Shown here: positions 11,980-41,500 of the stretch, piece by piece
How the letters are laid out: the number at the start of each line of letters is the position of its first letter
Numbering within the stretch: position 1 is the first letter of the stretch
From: Diaporthe sp. PMI_573
Taxonomy: Eukaryota; Ascomycota; Sordariomycetes; Diaporthales; Diaporthaceae
Length of the DNA stretch: 64,000 bases
NCBI GenBank assembly: GCA_021399435.1
Contig: JAJTUP010000032.1
Coordinates: forward strand, 248,001-312,000
Direction of reading: 5' to 3'
Made by a program: the position numbers and the translations under genes
Notes under the pieces: generated by a model
Told to the model about the DNA's origin: nothing
The model's database searches: none
The model's input: the letters and a program-made list of their open reading frames with translations, nothing else

Positions 11980-14558
11980 TCAAGTCTGGCGCCTTGGTGA
12001 CAACACCTTTGGAGTTCCTGATCGGTCCGGCCTGCTCGATTTGAGCCACTCCAAACATCTTTCTCGCGCCGGTGCTGCATATGATAGTGCGGTCGATGCT
12101 GCCCACTGGGATATTGAATCGTTGAGGCGGCCGGCGTCAACAACAAGGCTGCTGGATCGCCGCGTGCCGACATTTTTCACGGACGAACCAGCTTTGTCTA
12201 CATGCCACCCCAACAATGCCTCGAATTCCCACACAGCCTCAGCAGGTAGGCTCCGTAACTCGTAGTTGTCCACTAATCGACTCAAAATCTCGCATATTTT
12301 CCACACCTCGGTCCGTGACTGCTCAAAGAAGGACTGGTGATCCAGTGAAGGCTCTGCTTCGCTCAGATTTTCAAGCTCAAGCCTCTCTTCCTGATCCAAG
12401 AGCATGCCATGCAAGCCCATTATTGCCAATCTGATGTGCTTTAGCGCATTCAGTCTGTCCAGGGAACCTAACTCAGCTGTGAGGTCCTTCAAGGCATTGA
12501 GGATATCATCGTGCCCCAAGTCGGGGAAGCTCAGATCGATGTCCAAGACCTCAGAGTCAATTCCAGGGTCTGCGGTCGACTCATCCATCTGGTATTCTGT
12601 CTCGATTGAGAATTCCGCATCTGAACCATCTTCTAGTACCGGGTTCCCGGAATGGTCATATCCAACCCGCGGAAGACATCCCAGTGCGAAATCGTGCAGG
12701 TGCTGGATTATGTGCTTATCGGCAATCGTTGATGGGGAATCCGCTTTGTATGAGCATAGAGGGCAAGACAAAGCCTCGCCAAATAGCATCACTTTTTGAC
12801 TGAGCTCGCTTAGCGAAGGTAGCTCAGATTCGGTCAGGTTGTCTGTATGGACAAGCCTCATGTGATCCCTCCATTCGTCTTCCCGGCCGTATGGTCCAAT
12901 AACAGGCGTGTGTGTGTCACCTGTATCGGCCGCAGCGCAATAGTCGCATACCCAGAAAGTCCTTCCATGTTGGTCAAGGAGATGTCTCTCCAGATCCTCC
13001 GATGTCAAGAAAAACTCGGTCTCAATTTCGCAGCATTCGAGGTAGCAGCTATAGGGTAAAATATCTCGGGCAACATGGCCTCTATCAGCTTGGGATCAGC
13101 AAAGCGTCGAAGATTGTCACTTGCACGGGGATTTGTTACCTCCACCGTGACTTATTTTTGGAGTAATCGTCCGGTAGATCTTCGCCACAGTATGGGCATT
13201 GGAGCCTATCATCGTGATTGAAATGGGGAAGAGACGGATACTCGAGGACAAACCCGACTTGGGTTCCTTCGGTGACTGCGGACGGTGTCGGTTCATGCCA
13301 ATTGCCTAAGGGCCCAAATGAGAGCTCAGAACCAATCTGAGTGGCAGTTCTGGTCTGCTCTGTTACCCAAGACGTATTGGTGATCCCAGAGGTTTTCGGC
13401 GCAAATTTTTGTTGTGCCATAGCAGTCTGAGGTATTTCCCTCGGTTCTGAGAGGCTTTTGGCTTCGTGTATTCTGGCCTGCTGCGCAGTTTCTGTTTTGA
13501 TGCGCTTTTTTGGAGCGCGCTTCTTTTCAGCGACATAGATTCTGTTCCTTCTAACTACATTGTCTTTTATGAGCCGTCGTTGAACGGTCGTCAGCCGGTT
13601 CAGGCCTGATAGCGTGTCTAAATTCTCGACTACGTGGCCCTGACTTGCATTATTTGTTTCATTCCTGAAGTCGTAAATGAGAATTTTGAAAGTGAGGTGC
13701 GCCTCTAAGTCACTAAACAGATATCGATTCTCGTCAAGTAGCTTGTCAGCATCCTTGTGGCGGTACTTCGTTCCTGAGCGGCGGAGGAGCGTTGATAGTC
13801 GGGCTAATTGGTTCAGAATGTTTTTCATGTAGGTAAGGTTCTCGGCCAAAATGGTGTCCACAGGATCAACAGGATTCACAGAAACTGCTGCGAGCGAGGC
13901 GGTCTCTTCTTCATCACTGGAGAAACCACAGAAATTTGGAAGGTCCTGCGAGCCAGTCTCGGCCGACGCACCTTCCAATGATGCGGCCGACAGATGCATG
14001 CTATCGGAATCCAGTCGAAGTATATATTCCTGATGAATCCGCCGCTGTCACAAAGGATTCGAAAGTCAGGTGGGGAGGAGGAGACGGAGCAAAAGATACC
14101 TCTCGTATGCCTTCAGGGGATCCGTAGACCGATGAATCCTTAGATTCCGCGAATTCTTCCTCCTTTTCAGTCTGCTGTTGGACTGGATAAACCATCCCGT
14201 CGCATGTATCAGCTCAGGAAATTCAGGGGCCCGTAAAGCAGGTGGACTTACGCTCGTTGAGACAACATTCAAGTGCCTCTCGTAGGCCATCCAAGAGATC
14301 ACATATTAGTTCGCGGATATCTGGCCGATCTTGAACCCGGTGATCCAATGATGCTTTGTTGTCATTCGCAGCCTTTATGCCCCGAACCCAGAGGTTGAAT
14401 TTTCCTTGCCTATCCTCGAGCCAGCTATTGTCCCCTCCTACCAATCTGGACATATTCTCGAATAAGTACTGGCATTCCAGGACTCGTTCGCGAATTGTGA
14501 TCGTTGCATCCATCCGGTGGGTGGAGGGTAAGGGTGTTGAGCAGCCTTGTTGAGGCAT
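11980..14558 (-). CDS. C2H2-type zinc-finger protein of the 'acuF-like' fungal family
   Basis: Role unknown; related proteins are numerous in filamentous ascomycetes. Four exons in consistent phase: 14252–14558, 14100–14182, 13140–14044 and 11980–13081. The introns are 69, 55 and 58 nt with good donors (GTAAGT, GTATCT, GTAACA) and CTGAC/CTGAT branch sites, giving 798 aa. Exon 1 has the helical N-terminal module seen across this family (LFENMSRLVGGDNSWLED, RPDIRELICDLLDGLREALE). The third and fourth exons carry a cluster of Cys/His motifs: CPYCGEDLP, CYLECCEIETEF, WVCDYCAAA with following His residues, and CPLCSYKADS. The C-terminus is acidic then helical. The frame stays open without an ATG back to about 14776, so an upstream exon is possible and the N-terminus is uncertain. 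It is transcribed divergently from the DUF7580–protease gene. Confidence 0.75.
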
Positions 14559-14913
14559 TTTTGAAGTTGAAGGCAAGGATTCGATGAGCAGGGAGATGTC
14601 GGGCGCAGTGGAATTATGTACTGATATTTTGGATATAATATCGACATCGGTCTCTGGTACGGCATTTGAAATGACAGGGCGGCCTGAGGTTTCCGAACGG
14701 GAAACAGGATTGAGATCATTACTGGACCGTGACTTGAATGCATGAGCAGCGAAGGCACTGGACAGATCAGGTTGATGTCAGCTCGCCGCATCCCCTGATG
14801 TAGGCTTTACCACTTTGAGAGATTCTCCTGCAGTCGTGCAACCCGGCGGCACTGCTGACAGGCGCGGCTTCTCGAGCGGAGACGCTTATAGGACCACTAT
14901 CTGACAACATTCC
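14559..14913. promoter_or_regulatory. Shared divergent promoter region
   Basis: The 355 bp between the first usable start codons of two divergent genes, the C2H2 gene (minus) and the DUF7580–S8 protease gene (plus). A shared control region is inferred from geometry. No specific operator was recognised, and part may be 5' coding sequence of either gene because both N-termini are uncertain. Confidence 0.4.
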
Positions 14914-17900
14914 ATGCCAGTGCTACGCATTCAGAGCCTATCCTTGATGCACGCAGCACTGTGTCTTTGCGATGATGGACATGTCCAACAGCAGGCAGCT
15001 TGCTGCTTTTACACACGACGCGACACAGGTGCTCCGCGGAATGTGCGCAGCAGCTCTCGAGAGCGGGGAATCAAGGCATTCTGCAGCACCCTTTCCGCCG
15101 CGCTTGCTGCAATTGACCTGTGGTTCGAGGAAAAGCTCCAGAGCGCTGAACAGGCGATCGACAACATTGGCGAAAAACGCCTGCAGAGGCTCTTATATAA
15201 CTATGAGATGTTGTGCAAGGTTTGCCTCACAATCAGGGACGTTGCTGGAGGCTATGATCCATGCTCTAACTGCATCTCCCCAGTGGCCAAGGTCTCCCAG
15301 CGTGTCTCCGACCGCAGATGGGGGCTTCTACCGCGGTCGTTATCCGGTCGTTTCACGAATGTTGACGAAGCCATTGTTAGCAAGCCAACCGGTCATTCGC
15401 GAAACTCTACGAAATTTTGCTAACGATCCCCGAGCCCGAAAACAACGAGCTGACCTTGTCAAACTTCTTACGAACTTCTCGAAGCCCAGAGGTGGCGTCA
15501 CCGGGCCCGACTTATCCGAGCTACTCGACAACTCTCAGAAGCCCGATGCCATAAATGATTCCCAAGCATACATTCGCAAATTATACTCTGCCCTGTCATC
15601 TTAGTGTATATGTCAAAGAGAAGGCCCTGAGAGTCGCATTCGGGCAAACGTGTCCTTGAGGGACTGCTGTCCAACGTGAGGAGGTCGAAGGGAGCATGAA
15701 CATCAGGATTTTCTTCCTGGATCATCCCCACTACCACAGCAGCTCCAGGGAAGCACAATGGCAAGATACTCGTGTATTTGTACAAACAAGACGGTGAGTA
15801 CGCCTTCGCTCCAGCGACTCTGTCCTGATCCGGCTGAATAAAATGGCTTTTAGAACGGTGCAATTTTCATGCGGGCAAGTGGAAAGCTCTTATGGCGAGG
15901 AGGAGCTCGCGGCTGGCCGACTGGCCTCCATTGACAACTTTTGTGAAATCATCACAAATAGGCAAAGAGGGCAGCTCAAATTGTCTGTGTCTGAAGCTGG
16001 TGTCTCTTATCAGGGCTCACAGGCTCCTGGTGATACATTCGTATTGGATGCCCCGAGCATCTCCTTGGCTGAGTTGATCACCAGCGTGAAGCTGTTCCAA
16101 AGGATGAGGCTCCTTCTATCATTCTATCTCGCCAGTTCTGTTTGGGCTTTCTACTCTACGGACTGGATGCGTTCGGGATGGACAAAAGACACAGTACATT
16201 TTATGTTCGAACGACGTTCCGGGGTACCCAAAGAAATCCACGTCAATGAACCATATCTTTCGGCTACATTCACAGCCCTCGAAGAGAAAGCTCAAGGGCT
16301 GGCAGAAAATTTCGGTTTCCGGTCACATATCTTCCCAAAGATACTGGCTCTGGGAATCATGTTGATAGAGATCGAGCTAGGTCTGAAAATCGAGGATTAC
16401 CGGGACCGCGACAGCCTAGGTCCAAAAGGAGATCCTACCGTGAATACGGACCATATCACTGCTACGAGGCTCCTCAATGCCCCCGATCTTTGGGAAAAGA
16501 TGGATACCTTCGGGGCTTTCCGGCAGGTTGTGGGGATATGTTTATCTCAGGATTCATTCCTCGGCTTCGTCAATGACCCAAGTGGGCTACGGGATTCTAT
16601 TGATAAGAAAATAGTCTACCCGCTTAGGGAGATGTACAAATACGCCTGGTTGGTCGATCCAGACCTTTCGAGCGTTCCGCATGTTCAGTTGGACACACTC
16701 GAAAATTCACAAACGCCCGGCGGCTCCACGTTGCTCCCTCACACACTTAACTCCACGCGTCCTCCCATCCAAGCTTTGAGGTAGGTTGTTCAAGGAAACG
16801 TTTCATTTATTTCTTAGCTTTCTCTCTTTTGGTTTGCTTTTATTTCCCTTTTCTTTCATTTTCATTACTCCTCCATCTTCTTTTACTACGAACCACGTAC
16901 TGAGATTAACATGTCATCCAGTAGACTCACATTGCCGTCGCCTCTCCCAGATGCTCCAATGTCAAACTGGTACGCTGAAGCATACATATGAACCGTGCGG
17001 TTGCAACGACAAATGCTTACGCTTGAGTCAATAGTTCCAATGTGTCATCTGATACATGGTTCGAAGAACTTGATCGATTAAATGCACTGCTACGCGGAAA
17101 GCCTCATGAGAAAGATGAGAGCTACAAGCCAGTCAAAATCGCGATACTGGACACTGGGCTCAGTGATGACTTCTCAGGCGCAGAATCGGTCAAGACCTAT
17201 AAAAGCTTTGCCGGTCTGGATGGCAACGACGATAATTGGCATGACGGAACAGGTCATGGGACGAAAGCTGCGCGTCTTGTGCAGAAGGTCTACAACAAGG
17301 CAGATTTATACATCGGCAGAGTCTTTGAGAATGCGCACGCAAGCCCAGATACTGCTACAGTGATGGCAAAGGCTCGTAATACCCATGCCTTCTGGTTCTG
17401 AGCTTTTATCATGGCTTATCTGATAATCTTCCAGGCAATTCGGTACTCCGCAGATGTTTGGCAGGTTGATATTATTGTGATTCCGTCAGGTTTTAAGTCT
17501 GAGGATTCAGCCATAATGGATGAAATTGATGCAGCCTACGCCAAAAATATCCTTATTTTTGCCGCCGCATCTAATTATGGGAATTTAACGGATATAGCCT
17601 TCCCCGGACGTCTTTATGTGGCAGGCAAAGTAATTTGCATGTTCTCTACGGATGCTAATGCTCGGGCGCTTTCGAGTTTCAACCCGTCCCCCTCATCAGC
17701 AGCAAGATACAATTTCGCAATACTTGGCGAGGGAATCACGCTTCCGCCGAAGACTGACGAGCGCCTTTCTGGTACTTCTTTCGCTGCTGTCATTGGGGCG
17801 GCAATCGCGGGTCGCATCCTTGATTTTTCTAGACACAAAGACATGTACAACAAACCTCGGAGGGTCGACATCTTGAAGAGGTTGAAAACTGTCCAGGGAA

Positions 17901-18070
17901 TGTCTGCAGTATTTAGCAAGATGGTACGAGGAGCAGTGGACAACCGGTACCATTGTATGGCACCTTGGAAGATTCTGCCCCCTCAACAAGCAACCGGGGA
18001 CAGAGTGTCGGAGCGAGCTCATGTATGTGAAACAATATCCAGGGCAATGGAAGATATGTATGGCGAGTAA
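14914..18070 (+). pseudogene. DUF7580–subtilisin-like (peptidase S8) protein, apparently broken; HET-Q2-like architecture
   Basis: The architecture is helical N-terminus, DUF7580 module, then S8 protease. Exons readable by splice signals: about 14914–15219, 15283–15793 (with lesions), 15854–16780, 16922–16969, 17035–17371 and 17435–18070. The DUF7580 part includes APSISLAELITSVKLFQRMR and ILALGIMLIEIELGLKIEDY. The S8 triad is intact: Asp in AILDTGLSD, His in GTGHGTKAA, Ser in LSGTSFAA, with the oxyanion Asn in AAASNYG. Lesions: an in-frame TAG at 15601–15603 after KLYSALSS; a net frame change between about 15640 and 15690 (upstream CICQREG...RIRANVSLRDCC, downstream EEVEGSMNIRIFFLDHPHYH); and a GC rather than GT at the donor after 17371. 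No plausible intron removes the first two. In Podospora, the S8 protease HET-Q2 activates the gasdermin-like HET-Q1; here the gene is tail-to-tail with a gasdermin-like gene. Assembly error is the main alternative to true decay. Confidence 0.7.
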
Positions 18071-18204
18071 AAATGGGTGGTACCTCGCTGTAGATATTCA
18101 AGTTCAAATGAGGCATAACTTCAAGCTCCGCTCCGGAAAATCCGCATAAAAGTCTGATAATTTCTACGTTTCCGGCAATGTTGGTTGCACGTAACCAAAC
18201 TCTT

Positions 18205-19090
18205 CTAGTCGGTAAAAACAAAGACTTCGCCATTCCCTGTAGTATACAATTGTACTCCATCGGTCTCTCCAGAGAATTCGTCCACAACTACGGATCCGAT
18301 GTCAAGTTGTTGCTCATCCAGGGAAAAGGTTACCCCTTTACTCAGCGGTTCGTGCGACCATTGTCTGTTGATTAGACCTTTACTGATTTTGGCAAGACGG
18401 ATGGCCCAGATGAAGTCAGACATCTTCTCAGCTGATGAGCTCGCTGATTTCTCTTTCGTCCGTGCCTCTTCGATGCCTGCCTCAGCAAGAAGCGGCACCT
18501 CGCTTCATTCAGTCTTGTTAATGACTGCGGTGATTTCATACATGGTTTAAAATGGAGGGTTTGACTTACACACCCATGCCACCAGACAAGCCCTTTGAAG
18601 AAGACTTTGAAGTTTGAAAAGCTGCACCTTTGGCAACCTTGATACCTGTTATCATGAACACTGAATGGGAGCCAAGAGCAGCTCGAGTCGACAAATAGGC
18701 AGACACTTCCTCGGTCTCGACACTTTCCGCCACATACTCAGCCGTGGGCTGAATAATAAAGGTCTCCGGGGCCTCGAACGTTCAAGAAGAACGCATACTG
18801 CGCTTGAGCACCGCGCCAATTTCGGCACGCACGATAATGCCAGCAGCCGCAGCAATAGGAACACCAGCGCTGAGGGAGAGGTCTGATCCTCGCCCATCCT
18901 CGGTGGTATCTGGCAAGTCGAAAGACTTCGTCGAGGAAATGGGCATATCAGGAGGGAATTTTAATGGGCCCCTCCGTCGATTAATGACATTATCGAGATG
19001 CTTGAGGTCCGGGATAATATGTCCAAGACATATGGATCCACTGTTGCCTCCAAGGCCATATTTGATTATAGTCGGTGGGGGATAATGTAT
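18205..19090 (-). pseudogene. Fungal gasdermin-like (HET-Q1/RCD-1 type) gene with a premature stop
   Basis: Read on the minus strand, the frame gives SICLGHIIPDLKHLDNVI, PLKFPPDMPI, LSLSAGVPIAAAAGIIVRAE, TFIIQPTAEYVAES, SVFMITGIKVAKGAA, then DFIWAIRLAKISKGLINRQW and KGVTFSLDE, about 265 codons in all. Exon 1 ends at 18570 (GTAAGT donor). A 67-nt intron follows, and exon 2 runs 18502–18205. The alternating strands, the SVFMITG and WAIRLAKI-type segments, the size and a short tail after the last conserved segment match my recollection of fungal gasdermin-like proteins. I could not run an alignment. Lesions: an in-frame TGA at 18784–18782, where relatives would be expected to have Trp, and no ATG at the expected start (ATA at 19090). 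An upstream exon could supply the start. The gene ends 135 bp from the S8 protease gene, tail-to-tail. Active relatives form membrane pores that kill the cell once their C-terminal tail is cleaved. Confidence 0.55.
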
Positions 19091-20381
19091 CTGGCGACGG
19101 CAAGCCTCGCGGTACCTTTCCCAACTGCCGAAAAGTAATCAGACAGTCGTACGTACTATAGCCCCTGGCTGAGGGGGCAGCGCCGCAATGGCGAGCTGGG
19201 ACTATCTCGCCCTCCGGCCGACCATAGCCGGCGTTCACCAGCTGCCTGGACCTCTTGTGCCTAATTTGGTTTGCACTGCTTTACTGGGGTTACATTAAAG
19301 GTTGGCGTAATTTCCTAGGACGCGTGATTATGATGCGATACTGGTATGCAGCGTCCGTCCGGGTCGCCGTAATACGCGGTGACTGGTATTGGGTGGGGTG
19401 GACCGATTACCTGGCTACTAAAAACAGCCGTTGAGGGGTGCTAACCAGTATCTATAGTTGCGACCGGAAGAGTGATGACTGGTCAGGAAGCAGTCCCAAC
19501 GGGAAAAGCAATGACTGGTAAAGAGGGTGTGACTAGTCCCAAGGGGAGAGCGATATGAGTGGCCAGGAGGCTCAAAAACCCCACCTAGGCTGGTTGATTT
19601 CACTCTTTCACAATTTTTAACTATAAGTCACTATTGGAATATCCAGAGGTCGCATACGTTTCATGAATTCCTTGGCTATAACATTGCATTTCATATTCAC
19701 GGCTCGTTGTATCAAAGCCTCCAGCCAGTGCCTATCTGCAACAGATGACGGAATTGGATGCGACGAGATGCCTAGGTAGTTGCTTTATATATTATATAAT
19801 GTCTTATCCAGGTTCTCTAGTATAACCCTATCTATCAGGAGGCTAATTTTGTCATGAATCAACTACTAACGCCTCAAGCACGTATTTCTAGGTACCCGTC
19901 ACATCTAACACCAAGACTTTCCGCACTATTTACAGTACATTTCTTCTCTTCGCACCAGTCTGAGCATTTCAAGTCCCGTTGTTCCTCTATAGCGTTATCT
20001 TTACTAGGTTAGTCATTAATCCGTTTAAGACTAATACGCGCCTCGTCCACTCCTAGTGAAGTGCACTGTCTATATTACCTCACCCACCCTTTAACCCGGT
20101 CGCTTTCCATAGGCGACTCATTCTTTGACGAAACCGGTCAGCTTCTCGTGACTATGACCCTGCCCCAGGACTCTGTTACTGACGCCAGAAAGGAAGGGTC
20201 CCGGTCCGTGGCGTTGTTTTGTCCAACAACCAGAAGCCTGTTGCTAGGCCGAGCTGCGGGGCTGGTCTACCGACGGCTGGCTAGATCGCCCGCTGCTTTT
20301 CTCACATACAGTCCAAAGGCGCGTACACGTTAGGCCTGCCCCTTGACGTATTAATAACTCAAGTATAGGTACCTTTTTCTT
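19091..20381. other. Gene-free stretch
   Basis: The first 150 bp may contain a lost or unseen 5' exon of the gasdermin-like gene. From about 19.6 to 20.1 kb the sequence is AT-rich with stops in all frames. A plus frame at 20061–20333 has no recognisable content. A short degenerate tandem repeat lies at 19471–19575. Confidence 0.5.
19471..19575 (+). repeat. Degenerate ~40-bp tandem repeat
   Basis: Three diverged units can be aligned by eye: 19471–19506, 19507–19549 and about 19550–19575. They share blocks of the type AGYGATGACTGGT and AGTCCCAAcGGG. Related GACTGGT words also occur upstream near 19380. The ORF in this stretch is not supported as a gene. Confidence 0.5.
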
Positions 20382-26605: not shown

Positions 26606-28558
26606 CTATCGCCCGAACCTCTCCTTGTAAAACGACCTAACCTCATCATTCCCACCTACCCCCACCTCCAGCCCCCTGGCATCGCCCAAGATCTGGAGGC
26701 CCCGCAGGCTCGTGGCGCGTGACAGCGCAACGTATACCTGGCCATCGGCAAATGCCTTCGACACGTCGATCTTGACCTTGTCCAGCGTCATCCCCTGTGC
26801 TCTGTGGATAGTGAGGGCCCAGGCGGGCGTGAGGGGTAGCTGCGTGCGACACAGCAGCGAGTAGGGCTCGTCGTCACCCAGCTCGTTGACCTGGCACTCG
26901 GCTCGGATTTCGCGCTCGATGCCGTTGCTGAAGCGGACTATGGGCCAGACCGGCTCGTCGACGGTCTTCTCGTACGTCCTTATCTCGGACTCTTTGAGCG
27001 TGGCGTGGTCACCAGAGCCCAGGGATATCGTTTCTCCCCTCCTGTCTGGTGATGTCCATCCGACAATGACGCCCTGGCTGCCGTTGCAAAGTCCCCGGTC
27101 CAGGTCGAGGTTGGCCAGCAGGACGACCGGCATCCCGCACTTGAGCTCCACACGGCGGTCCATGGAATGTTCGTCGAGAGACTTTAATGACCCATCTGCG
27201 TGCTTCTCGCCTTTTTTCTCCAGGTGCGGATGCACTATCCTGTTCCAGACAAAGGTATCGCGGCACTGGAACGGATACGACTTTGTGGCCAGCTTCTGAA
27301 ATTCTCTCTCGTTCACGAGGCGGACTTCCTCCCGCGTCGGGTAGAGCTCAACAGCTCCTGTGGTGTTTGTTTCGTGATCCATCAGGAGATTGACCTCGTC
27401 CGGGGTGAATGGCTCACCCAATCGACACTTGTTTAGTAACGAGATGAACACTGGGTCGTGTTGCCGGTGGATTCTGTCCAGATACACGTGAGCAAAGTCG
27501 CACTCCTCCCACCCCTTGCTGCGGAAAGCCCACTGGTCGCCCGCATGATAGGTCGCCTCGCACCGACCACAATAGTAAGTCTTCCCGTCACCTTCCTCAT
27601 CCTCCTCCTCGCCCATCTCGCTGCCGCACTCGATGCAATGCCTGAAGGGCCTCACAGGCGGGAGCTGCGCAAAGTCCCCCGTGACTATGACCTGGACGCC
27701 GCCAAACGGGTAATCCAGCGCCGGATACCCCCGCTTGTGCCGCGCGGCCTTCATGACCTGGTTCAGACGCTCAAAGTGCAGGTTCTCGACCATGCTGATC
27801 TCGTCGATGATCACCACGTCGGTCCCCCGGAGCCGCCTCCGCACCGCCTTGCTGTTCTTGCTCCCCGCCGCCGCCCTCAGCCTCTCTATGCCGAGCTTGT
27901 GCGAGTTCGGGCTCCACCCGGCAAAGGACCAGGTCGTCGTCCCGTTGATCGCGAGCGCGGCCCTGCCGGTCGGGGCGAGCACACGGACGCGCTTGCCCAT
28001 GTCCTGCAGGCGCTGCACGATGGCGCGCAGCACGGTCGACTTTCCACATCCTGCTGAGCCCGTGTAGAAGACATTGCGGCCGCTCGCGGCGAGCTCGACA
28101 ACCTCTGCCTGCTCGGGGGAGAGCGGTGGGCCGCGAAAACGGAGGTGCGGTTCATTATTGCTGCCAAGCACCTCGGGTTTCCTTTCTGGTCCATCCCTTG
28201 CCGCCTTCTTTGCCTTCTTTGCCTTCTTTGCCTTCTTTGCCTTCTTTGCCTTCTTTGCCTTCTTTGCCTTCTTTGCCTTGTTTGCCTTGTTTGCCTTGTT
28301 TTTCCGGGCCTTCACCCCGCTCTTGATGCTGTAGCTTAACGCAGCCAGCTTTGGTCCTTTGAAGGGCTTAAGTGCGCGTGTGTTGGCATGTGCGTGGCCG
28401 GGGGTGGAGGATAGTCCACGGCGGTCCAAGGTAGAGACGCGCCGCACCGTCACGCCAAGATCTTGGTGCTGCTGCCGCAGCTGCTGCACCACGCGAAGTG
28501 ACAACCTGCAATGGAAAGAAACAGGTCCCGGGAGGGCCTGCCATCGAAAGGGAAGCAT
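26606..28558 (-). CDS. PIF1-like ATP-dependent DNA helicase
   Basis: A 5'-to-3' superfamily 1B helicase, 650 aa, single exon. The N-terminus (MLPFRWQALPGPVSFHCRLS) is basic and without acid residues for about 30 positions, which suggests mitochondrial import. Then follow an Ala-Lys-Lys/Ala-Asn-Lys repeat (about residues 89–120), Walker A GSAGCGKST near 170, motif Ia LAPTGRAALAI, Walker B VVIIDEISM and motif III VIVTGDFAQLPPV. After motif III a Cys4-type insert (CIECG...YYCGRC) appears, followed by the C-terminal RecA domain with LTIHRAQGMTLDKV and VYVALSRATSLRGLQIL. All helicase motifs are present and the frame is open throughout. Small PIF1-like genes of this sort are often multicopy in accessory fungal DNA; whether it acts on mitochondrial DNA, telomeres or a mobile element is unknown. 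Confidence 0.88.
   Translation of the reverse strand: MLPFRWQALPGPVSFHCRLSLRVVQQLRQQHQDLGVTVRRVSTLDRRGLSSTPGHAHANTRALKPFKGPKLAALSYSIKSGVKARKNKANKANKAKKAKKAKKAKKAKKAKKAKKAKKAARDGPERKPEVLGSNNEPHLRFRGPPLSPEQAEVVELAASGRNVFYTGSAGCGKSTVLRAIVQRLQDMGKRVRVLAPTGRAALAINGTTTWSFAGWSPNSHKLGIERLRAAAGSKNSKAVRRRLRGTDVVIIDEISMVENLHFERLNQVMKAARHKRGYPALDYPFGGVQVIVTGDFAQLPPVRPFRHCIECGSEMGEEEDEEGDGKTYYCGRCEATYHAGDQWAFRSKGWEECDFAHVYLDRIHRQHDPVFISLLNKCRLGEPFTPDEVNLLMDHETNTTGAVELYPTREEVRLVNEREFQKLATKSYPFQCRDTFVWNRIVHPHLEKKGEKHADGSLKSLDEHSMDRRVELKCGMPVVLLANLDLDRGLCNGSQGVIVGWTSPDRRGETISLGSGDHATLKESEIRTYEKTVDEPVWPIVRFSNGIEREIRAECQVNELGDDEPYSLLCRTQLPLTPAWALTIHRAQGMTLDKVKIDVSKAFADGQVYVALSRATSLRGLQILGDARGLEVGVGGNDEVRSFYKERFGR
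28204..28302. repeat. In-frame 9-bp minisatellite inside the helicase gene
   Basis: Eleven tandem 9-bp units: eight perfect CCTTCTTTG copies followed by three CCTTGTTTG-type variants. On the coding strand it is translated as repeated Ala-Lys-Lys, then Ala-Asn-Lys. Because the unit is a multiple of three, copy-number change would alter length but not frame. Confidence 0.95.
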
Positions 28559-31253
28559 GAACTCGGGGTTGATCGGGGTGATCGATCGCTCCAGATCTTA
28601 TTGGGCACGTCGAGGGCGGGGGTGAAGTTGATAGCTCACAACGAGAATAGGGAGGCTTGGCTATTTGTTGGCCACATAGCTATACTCGTTTGCCACGATA
28701 TCAAAAACCACGCTAATATTCGTTTGCATTCCACAGTATCAAACCCACACCAACAAGACGAGTATAGCCTGGCAAGTGGGCACCTGGGCTGATTAGTCCT
28801 GTAGGTACCGACTACCGACCTTTCAGGTACGGACTTGGACGTACTAGGCGGCGCGCAGGATACGCTTACCACAACAACCATAGTACCTAATAAACCCCCA
28901 TGTGGAACCCCTGCGGACTACATTTACAGGCATTACATCTTGAAAAGCTGCAGCGCCGATTATGCACTACTAGAAGTGCCGGGTGTGACGGTCCGTCTTA
29001 CACAGTATATACTGTTAGGAATGCCCCCGATCTGCGAATAGAAATCCTGGTCTTTCTAAAATTGGCCGGCACACCTGCTTTGCTAGCAGTAATCAAGCTT
29101 CGTGTCACCGGGCAGGTGGGAAAGGGAAACGAAAGGGGTCAGGGGTATTCTAAAATCGAATAGTCTACTTTTTCGTATAATCCTACTGGACAGCCTGACC
29201 GGGTGCATGAGATGGCAATTGATGGTCGAGACGGACATGGGAGGCACGGGCCTATCGCCACGACGTGGTGGATATTGTCGCTTCTCCCGCCGTGCTGGTG
29301 CCACTCCCCGAAACATGACCTCGGGACTGGGCAAATCACAAAGGCCGAACAGATGGGAGCAACGGAATCCTCGGGTTTGTTGTGTACATATCGTATGACA
29401 TTATGCTTCACTCGAAACCCGAGGTCAAGCCTTATGATGCTGGCTCGACGGACAGCATCAAACGGCCAGGCCAGGCACGCGGTGGGATGAGTGGCATAGA
29501 ATTGCTCTGCTCTGCGTGCTGTTGCGTTTGCACTTACACAGTATCCTCCTCGCCCTATCACGGGAATGATGCGGTTTGACATGACCATGCCGTACGAATC
29601 TCAGCCTCGAAGTCTCAGCGTCGTAGAATATCCGGGCTTAAGTGCTCTATTACGGGCTCTCGCTCATGGGCCCGTTTTGCGCCAGCCTGGTTCGGTAAGT
29701 AGGTCGTGCGGTGGGGATTCTTTCGTAGGCCAATCCTAGTCGGGATGCACATTGTGGGTCGTGGCACAAGCCGCATTCAAGCGGCAGCAACAACTGCATT
29801 TGGTTGCACGTGCATTTGTCTGTATCCTGCACTTGTCACTCCATGCGTTTGGAACATGTATGGTTTTCCCTCCGTAGACATTGTACTCCGGTACTCTGTT
29901 GGCTGCAGTCAGCCAAGTCGTCGTGGTACACGGACCACGAGTTCGTGGCAAGAAAACATGTCATGTCGCCAGGCTTTCCCCGGGCAACCCGGTCCACGAG
30001 CAGATGGCGACATGACATGCTGGCGCACGGATGATGCATGGCCTCTGCTATTACTCCAACGGTATATGTGCTTCAGTATGGGACGTACAAGTTCGGTGTC
30101 ATTTGTCATCGCACGGCTGAGGTGAGGTAGTGTCGTGAAGTAAGCAGACAAGAGGGCCGTTTGTATCCGTCACCCACTCTGAAGACGCGACAAGCAAGCA
30201 GCCCCCGCGAAATGAGTGGGGCCCCCAACAGTTTGACTCCAAGCCTTTGGATTTGCTGCCGTTTGTAGTAGTTCGGTGCGAGGAGGGGGGAACAAGAACA
30301 CGAGCTGGCTGGAACTCATCTGGTAAGAGTAGGGCAAGGACAAGTTTAAAATAAAATCAGGAAGAAATAGAGAAAGAAAACAAGAAAAGGTGAGCAAAGA
30401 TAGACCAACGGTTGCCAACCCTGTTTCACAGCGGGAAGGGGCGGGCCGTTCCCCCCTAGCCCAGCCCAGGCCCAGAGCGGGAAACCTTTACCTCGCGTGG
30501 ACCAAGTCGGCCGTCGAGCTTCTGCCCTTTGGGAGATTTGGGAGAGGAAACAGCCACCCGCATCGGCACCCACTACACCCACATCCAGGCGCCGATCAAT
30601 TGCCCGAGTTGCTCTTCCGCCTCGCAGCTCGCAGCCCACTGCCCACTGCCCCAGACCTGAACCATGTTGGCCTGACCGGTGTACAGCATGACATGCACAG
30701 CCAGTCAGTACTCATTGACTCAATTTTCCCATCTCTGCTGTCCAATCCGAGGACCACCTGCAAAGCATCACCCAATTGACCCTGCAAGAGGAGGAAAAAA
30801 AGAAAAGAAGACGGGGGAAAAACAAGAGAGAGACGGCAGGGGCGAGGGGAAGGGAAAACTCAGCGGCCATCGCCCATCGCGCACTGCCAGGCACAGCTTA
30901 CTCCTCTTTTTTTTCTTGCCTTTCTTGCCTTCTTTTGTCCAGTCACCTTCTCACCTGACACCCGATTCTTCACCACCCAGCCTCCCTCCCCTCCCTCCAC
31001 CCTCGCGACTGCCCATCCAACCAAGTCTACCGGATGCACCTACCTGTCGTTGTCTGCCTTTCCCCAGCCCATGCTCGGCTGCGCCCACCACCACACTCTC
31101 TCGGCCGGCAGCTGCCATAGCACAAGTCGCTCTTTCCCTCAACCTCCCCCCCCCTCCCCCATCCTCCCTCTGCCTCACGCCTGCTTCTTCTTACCTCTTC
31201 CCGTGCCACCCTGGCCGTCCTGCCCGCTCCCTCTCACGCCCTGTCGCCTTGAG
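28559..31253. other. Long intergenic region with structured DNA
   Basis: No supported coding gene in about 2.7 kb. The first part presumably contains the helicase promoter. The last 300 bp before 31254 is strongly pyrimidine-rich (C/T runs), as in promoters and 5' leaders of filamentous fungi, and fits the next gene. The notable content is the hairpin cluster at 29770–30019. Confidence 0.5.
29770..30019. repeat. Cluster of perfect hairpins
   Basis: Perfect stem-loops in order: 29770–29785 (GCCGC, 6-nt loop, GCGGC); palindrome TGCACGTGCA at 29805–29814; 29899–29916 (TTGGCT, 6-nt loop, AGCCAA); 29921–29940 (TCGTGGT, 6-nt loop, ACCACGA); and a 15-bp stem formed by 29957–29971 and 30005–30019 whose 33-nt loop contains a further CCGGG/CCCGG stem. 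No coding function is seen on either strand. It could be a structured RNA, a palindrome-rich element or a recombination scar. Confidence 0.6.
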
Positions 31254-35635: not shown

Positions 35636-38534
35636 GTTCCTTTTATGTAGGCCTGGGGGGAATATTATGGCACGACAAACTCAAAACCATCCTGGGTCAA
35701 TGACAGGAGAATTTATTTTCTTAAGTTTCGTAGAATTAGTGGGCTAGCGTCAATGAAGTTATATATCCCGTCAAGAAGTGTGTAAAATCGCAGCGGATTT
35801 AGGAAGCACAAGGATGTATTCGGGTGATCATTGATGATGTGCTTTTACTGCCAGGGATGGGGATTCGAGAACGATCCCAGTGATGGAAATCTGATAAACG
35901 CCAGTATTCACATGTGGAAGTGATGACTGTTCTCTCTCGTGTCTGACGATTCGGTCGGCTTGTTGGTTGGCCTGCTCGCCCCCGGAGGGTTTCTTGCTCT
36001 TTTTCATCTGCCCTAGTACTTAGTGACTTTGCAAGGAGTTAAATAGCAATTCCAAAGTTTGGCCTCGTCATGATAACCCATGCCCATACTTGGGCCTCGC
36101 ACCAATGTTATTGGCTTCTGTTGGCATGAGTACTTCGCTGTCAGATATGACAAAATTGTCCGGGGTGATATTCCAGTCAGTCAGGCATCACACGGTGCTC
36201 AGGCAGGACTCTCAGGCTCATGGCTACCTAATGAAAATAAACTTGAGGTCCATAGTGCTCTACTCGTGAGCATCGCCACCGGCGCCAGAACGGGAGCAGT
36301 GGCTGACTGGTCTGCAGATTCGATGAGATGCTCAAGGCTGTGCAAACTTTATCGATGCCATTAAGAAGGTGCCATGTGAAGGCGAGCTTGTGTACTGCCC
36401 GTCCTACAACCGCCCGGGCATGCCGGTATTTAACTACTACATGGAGCACCGGAGTACTCTGCTCGATTTGGAAAGACCATGCAAGGCTGGCGATAAGGAG
36501 GAGTGAAGGCCCCTGAACTGCAAGGCCCATACATCAAGCGGTGGGCCGTCGTGGGTTGGGGTCCATCCGATGGACAAGACTAACAAGCTCACCCACCCAA
36601 GTGGTTCCCAACATCAACGAGTTGAGAGACAGTTACCCCTGAGCAGACCCCGAGGGGACGGTCATGAATGTTGTGGGAAGCAGTGGGCCATGCAGCCATG
36701 GAGCCGGGCTCGTGTAAGTGCCCCCACACACATAAGTCCTCCGCAGTCATCACGGACTCTATCGTGTTTCCGGGCTCAGGCCTAAACCCCCTTCTAAAGT
36801 CCGCAGTCCAAGACGCCGATGCATCAGTATTGGCCGTCGGAGGGAAAAATGCGCCGACGGACCCTGCGCGACCGCCTTGGCTCCACCCAGGCCGACTCCT
36901 CCCGGGCGAAGGGCGCGGCGGTCTACCCTGCTCCGCCAGTGGCACGCACGGCTGGGCCGACCTCGACGTGGTGACGATGGTGGAGGCGATCGTGCCCGGC
37001 CTGGAGGGGCTGGCGTCGGGGACGCCACGGCTTATCGACGAGATGGTCATGTCGGAGACTTTCTAGGCCGGGAGCGGTGTGCATGTGCCGCGCATGTGGG
37101 AGCGTGGGCGGACATGCCCCTTCATGCTGATGTGCTATGGCGTGAAGCAGCGGACTGTTCTAGAAGTTTGGAGGGCTGCTCAGAGAGGTGGTGGCCCCGA
37201 GATATGCCCACCCGCGTGCGTGCGTGGTGCATGCTGAGAGTGGTGCTCTTGGCATGCTTGAGGTCATCCTTGACAAGGACTTGCCCAAGTGAGTGTTAAG
37301 ATGATTGTGTTCTGTCGACGTGGGATAGCAGATATATAGGTTCCCGGGGAATGGTAGACGAGCCAGCCGCCCAAGCAATGCTTTCCAAAAACTTCATCTT
37401 TTAATGACGTAAAGATATGAAGCAAAGTGGCTTGTTCGTCATGACAATTTTGCATGTAGCACCAGTTTTCTAGCTAAGTCTGTATGAAGTTGATTTATTT
37501 TAGTAATTTATTCATGAGTAAAAGGTCTAAACAATAATGTGCATTATGTGCACAACCTACTTATACACACATAGTGACCTGCTGTATTAAAGCGAATAAT
37601 TTGTTCTCAGCATATTGTTACTAAGCCTATTCAAGAATGCAATTAGATTTATTGAAACCAGGGACTTAACCATGTCAGTGGTGTGAATGAAACGCTGGGA
37701 GCATTTAAGCATATATACTCGAGGTCAAACGAATGTAGGTTGGGTTTGGGAGATCCGGGGCATTGGGACGGGGGCATTGGGACTTCTCGGTAAAAAATAC
37801 GCGTTCCCGGTGTCCTGTCGGGCCCCGGCTCTGAGACCCACGCAACAGGGTTTAGGCCCAACGTCAACGGACTTAATAATCCAGTGCACGATGATCGTCA
37901 CCGCCAAGGATGAGCCGCATCTTCCGACGACCATCGCTCACCTACATGAAGACTTCAGTCAGGAAATGATTGCTCGATACAGTATAGTCCATCATATGCC
38001 AACATGCGAAGTTTTTGCGATGGTGTGGGTACGGAAGCCCCGGGCTCTGCGGGAGATACCAGATTGACAGATGGCCCACGTGTACTGACACCTCTTTGGG
38101 TCGGATAAGTGATCACCCCGTCAGATTTGTGGCCATCACGGAACGTGATCGGTGCCGTGCATAGCCTTCTGTAGGAATATTGAAATATAAGCCTAGACTG
38201 ATGCAGACATTTAAATGGGTTTTGGCTGGGTTTCAACTGTGTCACTCTTCAGCCTCTTGCCCGCTGTAACATTACGACAGCCTGCTTGGATTCTTTCCTT
38301 AATTGTACATTTGAAATAGACTGGCGGCTTCACGGCTACTCGTAATTAATCAAACAAAAGACCAGGTTGATGTCAAGTGGTGAGCCTGGACCGAACCTAG
38401 TGATTCTCGGAGCCCCAAGAACTGGATACTGACCACATTGGCCCCCTTTACAGGATAGCAAGAAATACTTGCAACCACAGCATCAGCCAGATCTTTCCAC
38501 ATATACCTGAACATCGATTCTCCCAATCGACAAT
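35636..38534. other. Accessory stretch with coding-like relics
   Basis: No intact gene. AT-rich around 35.7–36.0 and 37.4–37.7 kb. Two pieces look formerly coding: a 57-codon frame at 36333–36506 (GCANFIDAIKKVPCEGELVY, PGMPVFNYYMEH), and a frame at 36668–37066 whose end reads GWADLDVVTMVEAIVPGLEG. I cannot assign either to a family, nor join them by splicing. The final 400 bp before 38535 should hold the promoter of the PDR transporter gene. Confidence 0.4.
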
Positions 38535-41500
38535 ATGAACACACCATACGACGACAAAAAAGAGAGCCAGTCGCCCGCCGCAAGCCAAAGGACCTTTGTC
38601 GACCATGAGGTAGTCTTCACAGACTCTGAGCCACTCCCGGGCGCGAGGCCCGCTGGAGGCAACATGTCATTTGCTGCACAAGACGGGCACGCCTCCTCAT
38701 CGGAGACCGACGACGAAGGAAACGATACCGAGTTAGATCGCCGTCACTCTATTGTGCAAGAGCTAGCTCGAGAATACACACGTCACTCCGTGGCCACCGT
38801 CGGCGGGGACCATACAGCCCTTTTCGGAAGCGATGACCCCGACTCGCCTCTCAACCCAAACGGGAAAAAGTTCAGCGCTCGCACATGGGCGAAGGCGATT
38901 TCAAATGTTACAAATGAGCACGGCTCAGGATACCGGACTGCCGGTTTCTGTTACCAGAACCTGAACGTCTTCGGGTACGGCCAAGAGACGGACTACCAAA
39001 AGGACGTGAGCAATGTGTGGCTCGAGCTCCCCGGCCTCACCCGCAAGCTCTTCTCGAAGAGGGGAGCAGAGCGCCGCATCGATATTCTTCGAGACTTCGC
39101 CGGCGTGGTCGAGGCGGGCGAGATGCTTGTCGTCTTGGGCCCTCCCGGGTCTGGCTGCTCCACCTTCCTCAAGGCCATTGCCGGTGAGATGAACGGTATC
39201 TACACCGATGAGCGCGCCTACTTCAACTACCAGGGCATATCTGCCAAGGAACTGCATGACCACCACGCAGGCGATGCCATCTACACCGCTGAGGTCGACG
39301 TTCACTATCCTCAGCTGTCTGTGGGTGACACCCTCACCTTTGCCTCCCGGGCCCGCTGCCCCCGGACTCTGCCTCCTGGGGTCACGGCCAACCAATACTG
39401 CGACCATCTCCGCGACGTTGTCATGGCCATGTACGGCATCAGCCACACGGTGAATACGCGGGTTGGTGATAACTACATCCGTGGTGTATCAGGAGGAGAA
39501 CGCAAGCGGGTCACCATTGCAGAGGCTACACTGTCCAATGCCCCTCTGCAGTGCTGGGACAACTCTACCAGAGGCCTGGACTCTGCTAATGCGGTCGAAT
39601 TTTGCAAGACACTTCGCTTACAATCAGATTTGTTCCGTCAGACCTGCGCCGTGTCTATCTACCAGGCACCTCAAACGGCATACGATCTGTTCGACAAGGT
39701 TCTCGTCCTTTATGAAGGGCGACAGATCTTTTTCGGCCGTACGACCGAGGCTAGAGACTACTTCATCAACCTGGGATTTGAGTGTCCGGGACGTCAGACA
39801 ACTCCGGACTTCCTGACCAGTATGACAGCGCCGAGTGAGCGCGTGGTGCGCCAGGGATGGGAAGACCGCGTGCCCAGAACCGCCGACGAATTTGCTGCTT
39901 GTTGGGAGGCCAGCAAGGAATCCCAGACCCTGAAGGCGCTGATCGAACAGTACAAGGCAGACCACCCCCTTGGTGGCGCTGACGCCGAGGCCTTTCGAAA
40001 CCAGAAGCAGGCGGTCCAGGCCAAGAGCCAGCGCCTCAAGTCTCCCTTTATGCTTTCATACGGCCAGCAAGTCAAATTATGCCTCTGGCGTGGTTTCAAA
40101 CTCTTGCGAGGCGACCCTAGCCTGACGGTGTTTTCATTACTTGCCAATACTTCTATGGGTCTCATCATGTCGTCGCTGTTCTACAACCTCCCGGAATCAA
40201 CCTCGTCCTTCTACGGTCGGTCTGCGGTCATTTTCGTCGCTATCCTGGCCAATGCCTTCTCCAGCGCCCTCGAAATCCTCACACAGTACGCTCAGCGGCC
40301 GATAGTCGAGAAACAAAGCCGTTATGCCTTTTACCACCGTTCAGCTGAGGCACTCTCATCTGTTCTGGTAGACATGCCATACAAAATCGTCAACACCATT
40401 TTCTACGACCTGGTCATCTATTTCATGACCAACTTGAACAGGGAGCCCGGAAACTTCTTTTTCTTCCTCTTGACTACCTTCCTGATGGTCCTGGCAATGT
40501 CCGGTCTTTTCAGGTCGATGTGGGTTTCCCCGTGCTCTTGCTGTCGAAACAAAAGCTAACGTGAAAATAGTGCCTCTTTGTCACGCACCTTGTCTCAGGC
40601 CATGGTCCCAGCGTCGATCTTGATTCTTGCCCTTGTGATCTTTACTGGATTCGTCATCCCAGTCGACTATATGCTTGGCTGGTGCAGGTGGATCAACTAC
40701 TTGGACCCTGTAGCGTATGGATTTGAGTCGGTGAGTCGAGATTTCGAGTCCTCTCGTTCGACAACAGGCTAACCCCACCGCACAGCTCATGATCAATGAG
40801 TTTCACAACCGTAACTATGAGTGCGATGCCTTTGTACCCAGTCCTGCTCTTGCTGGCTATGAGAACGTCACACTTTCCAACAGAGTGTGTTCCACGGTGG
40901 GCGCTGTTGCTGGCAGCTCCTTCGTCAATGGCGATGCGTACGTCAACTCCCAGTACAAGTACTTCAACTCCCACAAGTGGCGCAACATCGGCATCCTGAT
41001 CGGCTTCGTCATCGCTCTTCATATGGTCTACCTCTTGGCCACCGAGTACATCGCAGCCAAGAAGTCAAAGGGCGAGGTTCTCGTCTTCCGTCGCGGCGTG
41101 ACGGCCCCGACCAAGGCCAAGAGCGACGTCGAAGGCTCCGTTGCCGGTCCCCTCACCATTATCGAAGAAAAGAATGACGGCCCCTCTACAGATGTAGGCG
41201 CCATCGAGGCCTCTACCAGCGTCTTCCACTGGAGCAAAGTTTGCTACGATGTCAAGATCAAGACCGAGACAAGACGGATTCTCGACCACGTCGACGGGTG
41301 GGTGAAGCCCGGCACTCTCACTGCACTTATGGGCGTTTCCGGAGCCGGAAAAACGACGCTACTTGACTGCCTCGCGGACCGTGTCTCGACGGGTGTTATC
41401 ACCGGAGAGATGTTGGTTGACGGTAAGATTCGCGATTCATCGTTTCAGCGCAAGACAGGCTACGTCCAACAGCAAGACCTGCACCTTGAAACGACCACCG

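What the first reader, a model, noticed from the sequence alone, without database searches (positions are those of the whole stretch)
14914..19090. Linked S8 protease and gasdermin-like genes, a HET-Q2/HET-Q1-type cell-death module
Seen: a DUF7580–subtilisin gene with an intact Asp/His/Ser set (stop at 18070) lies tail-to-tail, 135 bp apart, with a two-exon minus-strand frame containing SVFMITGIKVAKGAA and DFIWAIRLAKISKG. That second frame is split by one stop and lacks an ATG, so ordinary ORF calling misses it. Known: fungal gasdermin-like proteins (RCD-1 in Neurospora, HET-Q1 in Podospora) cause cell death, HET-Q2 is an S8 protease that cleaves HET-Q1, and such gene pairs are widespread. Inferred: this is the same kind of two-part recognition and death system. 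The N-terminal helical and DUF7580 modules would be its sensor side.
Basis: partly seen in the sequence, partly recalled or inferred. Interest (0 to 1): 0.9.

Follow-up and report, generated by a model that had tools for sequence, protein, structure and literature searches.

The report
Three-gene fungal gasdermin death cassette
In a Diaporthe fungus, a gene of the gasdermin family (proteins known for punching holes in a cell's own membrane) lies beside a protease gene predicted to switch it on, in a copy that is likely broken; similar pairs recur across the genome, mostly with a head-to-head zinc-finger-like gene that is likely the sensor of a modular cell-suicide system.

Summary
All three open pieces of the minus-strand gene (18205-19138) match the solved Neurospora gasdermins RCD-1-1/RCD-1-2. 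The gene lies 134 bp tail-to-tail from a DUF7580-subtilase (S8) gene that keeps its Asp, His, Asn and Ser motifs. The genome is Diaporthe sp. PMI_573.

Protease-clustered gasdermins are already published for fungi, so the pair itself is a new member of a known kind. The window copy is probably dead: an in-frame TGA and no ATG in the gasdermin, and an in-frame TAG plus a frame change in the 5' half of the protease gene.

Ten also carry a zinc-finger-like gene head-to-head with the protease; at other loci its relatives hold NACHT or TPR arrays. The same head-to-head pair also occurs on DUF7580 genes without S8. DUF7580 is predicted to have a kinase-like fold. Similarity suggests, without proving, that S8 travels with the gasdermin and DUF7580 with the zinc-finger gene. 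I read this as a sensing half wired to a killing half. Sensing, cleavage and death are inferred, not shown.

The parts
18785..19138 (-). Gasdermin, N-terminal piece (P0001); no ATG before the homology
   Evidence: RCD-1-2 E 6.4e-13, RCD-1-1 E 6e-7; C192 gasdermin E 3e-10 in the genome
18782..18784 (-). In-frame TGA inside the gasdermin frame
   Evidence: Stop between two pieces of one frame, collinear with P0003
18569..18781 (-). Gasdermin, middle piece (SVFMITGIKVAKGAA)
   Evidence: RCD-1-2 E 5.2e-7, RCD-1-1 E 7.3e-6
18505..18570 (-). Gasdermin intron, about 66 bp, GTAAGT...AG
   Evidence: Read from the sequence; the exact ends are inferred
18205..18504 (-). Gasdermin, second exon (DFIWAIRLAKISKG) and C-terminal tail, stop included (P0002)
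   Evidence: RCD-1-1 E 1.1e-5; C192 gasdermin E 2.6e-5 in the genome
18071..18204 (.). 134-bp spacer between the two convergent genes
17402..18070 (+). S8 protease domain, second exon (oxyanion Asn, Ser), stop included
   Evidence: PF00082 E 4.9e-4, below cut-off; S8 of C192 E 6.2e-26 and of 10 more loci; motifs
17027..17401 (+). S8 protease domain, first exon (Asp, His)
   Evidence: PF00082 E 0.026, below cut-off; S8 of C192 E 6.9e-14; motifs
15798..16784 (+). DUF7580 open frame
   Evidence: PF24476 E 1.7e-18; fold prediction on relatives
14905..15797 (+). 5' part of the protease gene in several frames, with an in-frame TAG (15602-15604) and a frame change
   Evidence: alignments to the C194 gene weak (E 0.03), partly by eye
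14223..14777 (-). Zinc-finger-like partner gene, first piece
   Evidence: Relatives at C194, C61, C152, C163, C12
13136..14047 (-). Zinc-finger-like partner gene, middle piece
   Evidence: Relatives at C194 (E 1.9e-25) and C12
11980..13095 (-). Zinc-finger-like partner gene, piece with Cys/His motifs
   Evidence: 16 other genome matches, 11 within 5 kb of a DUF7580 match; Pfam C2H2 only E 0.044, below cut-off

Best explanation
Window 11980-19138 holds a fungal cell-death cassette of three neighbouring genes in which a DUF7580-S8 protease would cleave, and so fire, the adjacent RCD-1/HET-Q1-family gasdermin, with a head-to-head zinc-finger-like gene as its likely sensor partner, and this particular copy is likely dead. 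Shown: gasdermin homology of all three pieces; DUF7580 and S8 domains with the catalytic motifs; the tail-to-tail order; the in-frame TGA; recurrence of the cassette in the genome. Predicted: DUF7580 has a kinase-like fold without visible catalytic motifs, hence a scaffold or sensor. Inferred: in intact copies (for example C192: P0003 with P0005) the partner, which at some loci carries NACHT or TPR arrays, would detect a trigger and engage DUF7580; the fused S8 domain would then trim the gasdermin's short C-terminal tail; the freed domain would open pores and kill the hypha, in incompatibility or defence. The similarity pattern (S8 with gasdermin, DUF7580 with zinc finger) fits a killing half and a sensing half exchanged separately, but rests on few loci.
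For: Gasdermin; paralogue P0003 vs RCD-1-1 E 1e-31. Protease; paralogue P0005 has DUF7580 and S8 above cut-off. Recurrence: 11 of 13 DUF7580-S8 loci with a gasdermin; profile of eight of the others hits seven PDB sequences at E<=1, all gasdermins, RCD-1-1 1.2e-18, HET-Q1 2.2e-12; 8 of 8 non-query gasdermin hits within 3 kb of an S8 match. Third gene: 11 of 16 non-query matches within 5 kb of a DUF7580 match, all 11 divergent; found at 10 of 12 DUF7580-S8 loci in hand; NACHT at C163, TPR at C12 and C213. DUF7580 fold. Halves. Known mechanism of HET-Q1/HET-Q2 and of a CHAT-gasdermin pair: PMC12881547, PMC10989679 (passages and one section).
Against: The window copy is interrupted in two genes, so nothing may be made from it. 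No cleavage, expression or cell-death data. Two of 13 DUF7580-S8 loci (C32, C185) show no gasdermin, and C202 no zinc-finger gene. Five of 16 zinc-finger matches are not near DUF7580. Pfam's C2H2 match to the window gene is below cut-off. Foldseek finds no kinase at E<=0.001. S8-gasdermin co-variation fails with plain identity (0 of 4 locus sets at p<0.05), and leaving out the window or C194 makes S8 and zinc finger correlate. Gasdermin tree: window+C194 is not rejected (p 0.17).
Confidence: 0.7

Rival explanations
1. An ordinary two-gene protease/gasdermin cluster of the published kind; the zinc-finger-like neighbour is incidental.
For: The two-gene kind is the described one; 5 of 16 zinc-finger matches are not near DUF7580; C202 and C32 lack the gene.
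Against: 11 of 16 non-query zinc-finger matches lie within 5 kb of a DUF7580 match (binomial tail 5e-24), all divergent; their similarities co-vary in 16 of 16 tests.
Confidence: 0.2
2. The window genes are functional: the stops are sequencing errors, or are passed by RNA editing, read-through or unrecognised introns.
For: The S8 exons and the DUF7580 frame are open with kept motifs; no reads were available to check the assembly.
Against: Several independent faults: TGA and missing ATG in the gasdermin, TAG and frame change in the protease. The TGA lies in a stretch collinear with P0003, leaving no room for an intron.
Confidence: 0.12
3. A het-Q-like incompatibility locus in which a broken gasdermin with a kept protease is one allele facing an intact gasdermin in other strains.
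For: Same protein kinds as HET-Q1 and HET-Q2; the S8 half is kept.
Against: Both genes lie side by side here and at ten other loci, while het-Q1/het-Q2 are idiomorphs. The protease frame is also interrupted. No population data.
Confidence: 0.1
4. The gasdermin serves secretion or another non-lethal role of the pore, and the protease tunes it.
For: PMC12881547 section 21 suggests roles such as secretion as open questions.
Against: The two characterised fungal systems are lethal; nothing here points to secretion.
Confidence: 0.05

Closest known systems
Protease-clustered fungal gasdermins and their Q2L proteases (Clave et al. 2022; known here only through the reviews PMC10197012 and PMC12881547)
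   Same: Gasdermin gene next to a multidomain S8 protease gene; protease as predicted activator.
   Different: The reviews' passages name ANK, TPR, WD40, NLR and kinase-like partners of the protease, not DUF7580, and two-gene units; here a head-to-head zinc-finger-like gene recurs. The original list of 18 architectures was not seen.
HET-Q1/HET-Q2 of Podospora anserina
   Same: Gasdermin (278 aa) and S8 protease (388 aa); homologous parts.
   Different: het-Q genes are idiomorphs at one locus; here the genes are neighbours, and the protease has a DUF7580 domain and a longer N-terminus.
RCD-1-1/RCD-1-2 of Neurospora crassa
   Same: Closest solved gasdermins by sequence.
   Different: RCD-1 death needs two antagonistic gasdermin alleles, not a neighbouring protease.
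Head-to-head paired NLRs of plants (sensor and helper)
   Same: Divergent neighbouring genes; one would sense, the other execute.
   Different: The executor here is a DUF7580(-S8) protein, not an NLR, and the partner carries NACHT or TPR only at some loci. PMC12258605 calls head-to-head NLR pairs rare in Sordariales (13 of 225 two-NLR clusters).

Membership tests
Fungal gasdermin (RCD-1/HET-Q1 family) | Sequence homology to RCD-1/HET-Q1 over the pore-forming domain | tested here: met
   All three window pieces match RCD-1; the profile of eight other neighbours also matches HET-Q1 and bacterial gasdermins
Fungal gasdermin (RCD-1/HET-Q1 family) | Open reading frame with a start | tested here: not met
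   In-frame TGA and no ATG in the window; met by the C192 paralogue P0003. The window copy is filed as a likely pseudogene of the family
Fungal gasdermin (RCD-1/HET-Q1 family) | Pore formation and cell death | not testable with these tools
   No experiment
HET-Q2-like (Q2L) S8 protease | S8 domain with Asp, His, Ser | tested here: met
   DTG, GHGT and GTS motifs, similarity to S8 at 11 loci; Pfam score of each half below cut-off
HET-Q2-like (Q2L) S8 protease | Gasdermin gene within 10 kb | tested here: met
   134 bp apart
HET-Q2-like (Q2L) S8 protease | Cleaves its gasdermin near the C-terminus | not testable with these tools
   No experiment
het-Q incompatibility locus | Gasdermin and protease as idiomorphs, alternatives at one locus | tested here: not met
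   Both genes are present side by side; definition from PMC12881547
Kinase-like (pseudokinase) fold for DUF7580 | Fold match to protein kinases | tested here: inconclusive
NLR receptor (zinc-finger-like partner gene) | NACHT or NB-ARC domain | tested here: not met
   The window piece 11980-13095 has none. Met at C163 (NPHP3_N/NACHT above cut-off); of six partner ORFs scanned, one NACHT, two TPR, three neither
C2H2 zinc-finger protein (partner gene) | Pfam zinc-finger match above cut-off | tested here: inconclusive
   zf-C2H2_4 E 0.044, 15 bits against 27; zf-Di19 E 0.05 at C158 and C46; Cys/His spacing by eye
HeLo-like membrane domain (DUF7580 genes without S8) | HeLo/4HB helical bundle | tested here: inconclusive
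   First exons of two such genes (L042, L043) predict as helices (pLDDT 79.8) without a significant PDB match; the resemblance is recalled

The most novel reading that the evidence does not exclude
Fungi have their own head-to-head paired death receptors: a zinc-finger sensor gene (with NACHT or TPR arrays at some loci) is divergently paired with a DUF7580 pseudokinase executor gene, and the executor's weapon is interchangeable: a fused S8 protease that fires a neighbouring gasdermin (pyroptosis-like), or a membrane-active N-terminal helical domain of its own (necroptosis-like). The sensing half (zinc finger + DUF7580) and the killing half (S8 + gasdermin) are traded as units, and the window locus is such a chimera, C194-like in front and C192-like behind, now decaying.
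Probability: 0.4. Interest if true: 0.8.

Novelty: new variant of a known kind. Interest (0 to 1): 0.6.

Why it matters
What triggers the sensors of these fungal death pathways is called a major open question (PMC12881547 passage). A recurrent third gene beside the protease names a concrete sensor candidate that can be deleted. A 2025 survey found fungal head-to-head NLR pairs rare (PMC12258605 passage); a search for NLR-NLR pairs would miss a pair in which one side is a DUF7580 protein. If one front end feeds both a gasdermin and a HeLo-like output, pyroptosis-like and necroptosis-like death in fungi would be two outputs of one receptor design. No Pfam model caught these gasdermins, so Pfam-based annotation would miss them.

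Tried and rejected
Pfam for the gasdermin: no family at E<=1 for the three window pieces or for P0003, and only sub-threshold chance matches for the eight other neighbours; the PDB sequence search gave the identity instead. Repeat-induced point mutation as cause of the stops: not supported for the window genes; the bulk indices of L034 (C202) and L024 (C61) do point that way. HeLo identity of the first exon of non-S8 DUF7580 genes: no significant match by profile or fold; kept only as a lead.

Half-swapping. Supported with BLOSUM-weighted distances and pairwise scores; S8-gasdermin not with plain identity. In leave-one-out, removing the window or C194 makes S8 and zinc finger correlate (r 0.63, p 0.003; r 0.50, p 0.03), and DUF7580-zinc finger falls to p 0.057 without the window. 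Trees: S8 window+C192 98/95 and window+C194 rejected (p 0.005); gasdermin window+C192 86/90, window+C194 not rejected (p 0.17); zinc finger window+C194 89/89; DUF7580 window+C194 66/0 and window+C192 not rejected (p 0.39) with C192 in, window+C194 88/95 with C192 left out; with C192 out of the S8 tree the window is unplaced.

Papers (searches of the held open-licence library only): no hit for DUF7580, 'oxidoreductase acuF', fungal+gasdermin+C2H2+NACHT, HeLo domain+C2H2+fungal+heterokaryon incompatibility. The main text of PMC12881547 holds neither 'DUF7580' nor 'zinc'. Clave et al. 2022 is not held, so its architectures were not checked. Related fungal genomes could not be searched: the genome collections here are prokaryotic or viral, and this genome has no relatives held.
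Full report
WHAT IS IN THE WINDOW. The window is 64 kb of an 83.7-Mb genome (C144:248001-312000). Two proteins encoded on contig C192 are database entries of Diaporthe sp. PMI_573, on a contig of the same length as C192, so the genome is that fungus. The minus-strand frame 18205-19138 consists of three open pieces. Each, searched alone against the PDB sequences, matches the Neurospora gasdermins: 18785-19138 RCD-1-2 E 6.4e-13; 18569-18781 RCD-1-2 E 5.2e-7; 18208-18504 RCD-1-1 E 1.1e-5 (where two sialidases also appear at E 0.3). Between the first two pieces is only a TGA at 18782-18784, in the same frame, and the paralogue P0003 (275 aa) runs collinearly on both sides. No ATG precedes the homology. 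A GTAAGT...AG intron separates the exons (read).

THE PROTEASE GENE. DUF7580 at 15798-16784 (E 1.7e-18) is followed by an S8 domain in two exon pieces. Each half alone falls below Pfam's cut-off, and the window's S8 was not listed in the whole-genome Pfam search. Its second exon matches S8 pieces at 11 other loci, best C192 E 6.2e-26, and DTG, GHGT, AAASN and GTS are present. The annotated paralogue P0005 (808 aa) has both domains above cut-off. The donor between the two S8 exons is not a GT at the position suggested by paralogues (by eye). The 5' part looks broken: an in-frame TAG at 15602-15604 and a frame change before 15759, judged against the C194 and C46 genes (the 5' alignments are weak, E 0.03, so partly by eye).

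RECURRENCE. The genome has 28 DUF7580 matches, counted as 27 loci. Twelve, the window included, have an S8 match next to them; at a thirteenth (C185, L019) an S8 start is visible in the sequence. Twenty kb around ten of these and 10 kb around C192 were read. Beside 11 of 13 lies a gasdermin: the window, C192, C61, C213, C152, C163, C194, C46, C12, C158, and a broken one at C202. C46 is the weakest on its own (E 0.0098). C32 shows none in the fetched stretch; C185 has none in the whole-genome gasdermin searches, and its flank was not read. A profile of eight of these genes, with the window and C192 left out, hits seven PDB sequences at E<=1, all gasdermins: among them RCD-1-1 1.2e-18, RCD-1-2 2.3e-16, HET-Q1 2.2e-12 and two bacterial gasdermins near 1e-4. 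Profile comparison with the window/C192 group gives probability 97.6. Because most were found by looking beside proteases, the fair count is that of non-query hits of whole-genome searches with the window piece P0001 and with the C61 gene: 8 of 8 within 3 kb of an S8 match, about 0.05 expected. One of the eight (C1) sits near an S8 gene with no DUF7580 match beside it. A profile search of the protein database listed 33 relatives, the named ones from Diaporthe, Fusarium, Trichoderma, Mytilinidion and Whalleya; only the candidates sharing most words were scored.

A THIRD GENE. Upstream and divergent from the protease lies a gene in pieces 11980-13095, 13136-14047 and 14223-14777. I call it zinc-finger-like: Pfam's C2H2 match is below cut-off (E 0.044), and the Cys/His spacing is judged by eye. 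With its largest piece as query the genome gives 16 other matches; 11 lie within 5 kb of a DUF7580 match (binomial tail 5e-24), and all 11, like the window, are divergent from it (strands). Seven of the 11 neighbours are DUF7580-S8 genes; four (C207, C79, C136, C112) have no S8 match. Five matches (C209, C172, C164, C147 and a second C158 place 22 kb away) are not near DUF7580. Local searches find the gene at 10 of the 12 DUF7580-S8 loci in hand (C192 mainly by its 5' exons, since the motif exon lies at the edge of the fetched stretch), not at C202 or C32. Of six partner ORFs scanned at these loci, C163 carries NPHP3_N/NACHT, C12 and C213 carry long TPR arrays, and C158, C152 and C46 carry neither. 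At C207 and C136, the only two non-S8 loci whose upstream exons I examined, the DUF7580 gene starts with a hydrophobic stretch in an exon predicted to be helical; a HeLo-like identity is my recollection and was not confirmed.

TWO HALVES. By tblastn the window's S8 and gasdermin N- and C-terminal pieces are nearest C192 (the short middle gasdermin piece scores best at C152), while its DUF7580 and all three zinc-finger pieces are nearest C194. Mantel tests over ten loci (nine for zinc finger) show all four families correlated. With the young clade C61/C213/C152 reduced to C61, S8-gasdermin (r 0.62, p 1.5e-4, 8 loci) and DUF7580-zinc finger (r 0.56, p 0.009, 7 loci) remain and the four cross pairs do not (r -0.05 to 0.22). 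Over four distance variants times four choices of loci, DUF7580-zinc finger has p<0.05 in 16 of 16, S8-gasdermin in 12 of 16 (failing in all four with plain identity), and no cross pair in any. Leave-one-out weakens this: without the window, S8-zinc finger rises to r 0.63 (p 0.003) and DUF7580-zinc finger falls to p 0.057; without C194, S8-zinc finger reaches p 0.03. The contrast thus leans on these loci, as expected if the window is the chimera, but also as expected of a fragile result. Trees agree in direction, but only S8 window+C192 is strongly supported. I treat exchange of halves as a lead.

HOW IT MOST LIKELY WORKS. From the published HET-Q and CHAT-gasdermin cases (reviews read in passages and two sections) and this anatomy: a trigger sensed by the zinc-finger-like partner is passed to DUF7580, the fused S8 domain trims the gasdermin's short tail, pores open, the cell dies. 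Only the parts list and the linkage are shown; trigger, contact, cleavage and death are inferred. The window copy probably does none of this, since the frames of two of its three genes are interrupted; whether its remaining protease half is made is unknown.

NOVELTY. Protease-clustered gasdermins are known (about 80% of fungal gasdermin genes, about 63% with S8). I found no paper naming DUF7580 and none joining fungal, gasdermin, C2H2 and NACHT; the library lacks most subscription papers and Clave et al. itself, so this is a limited statement. The recurrent head-to-head zinc-finger-like gene, and the same front end on genes without S8, are what I consider new.

Noticed in passing
window 47269-48942 (+): A HET-domain gene (PF06985, E 2.6e-27), another incompatibility-type family, about 28 kb from the cassette.
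   Followed up: no
L028 6608-8470 (C46): A 621-aa transposase-like frame (recalled look, no family search) lies between the S8 and the gasdermin gene of C46; that protease frame ends before its Ser motif.
   Followed up: partly
L034/L035 (C202) and L022/L023 (C158): C202 looks like a broken near-copy of the C158 protease-gasdermin pair; its DUF7580 match has 12 stops and L034 has indices that suggest repeat-induced point mutation.
   Followed up: partly
L036 3916-6408 (C12) and L032 3256-6108 (C213): Partner genes with 11 and 14 TPR_10 stretches; those of C12 look nearly identical to each other by eye, as in fast-evolving fungal receptors.
   Followed up: no
P0003, P0001, P0002: No Pfam-A family matches these RCD-1-like gasdermins even at E<=1: a gap in annotation.
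   Followed up: partly
window 11980-19138: The cassette's G+C is 0.49-0.50, while 25 of 32 2-kb bins of the window are above 0.51.
   Followed up: no
window 26609-28597 (-): A 663-aa frame with PIF1-like helicase domains (PF05970, E 1.2e-27), possibly from a mobile element.
   Followed up: no
window 38511-43140 (+): PDR/CDR-type ABC transporter in two frames.
   Followed up: no
window 19360-19560: Several spaced copies of a TGACTGGT-like word just upstream of the gasdermin gene (by eye).
   Followed up: no
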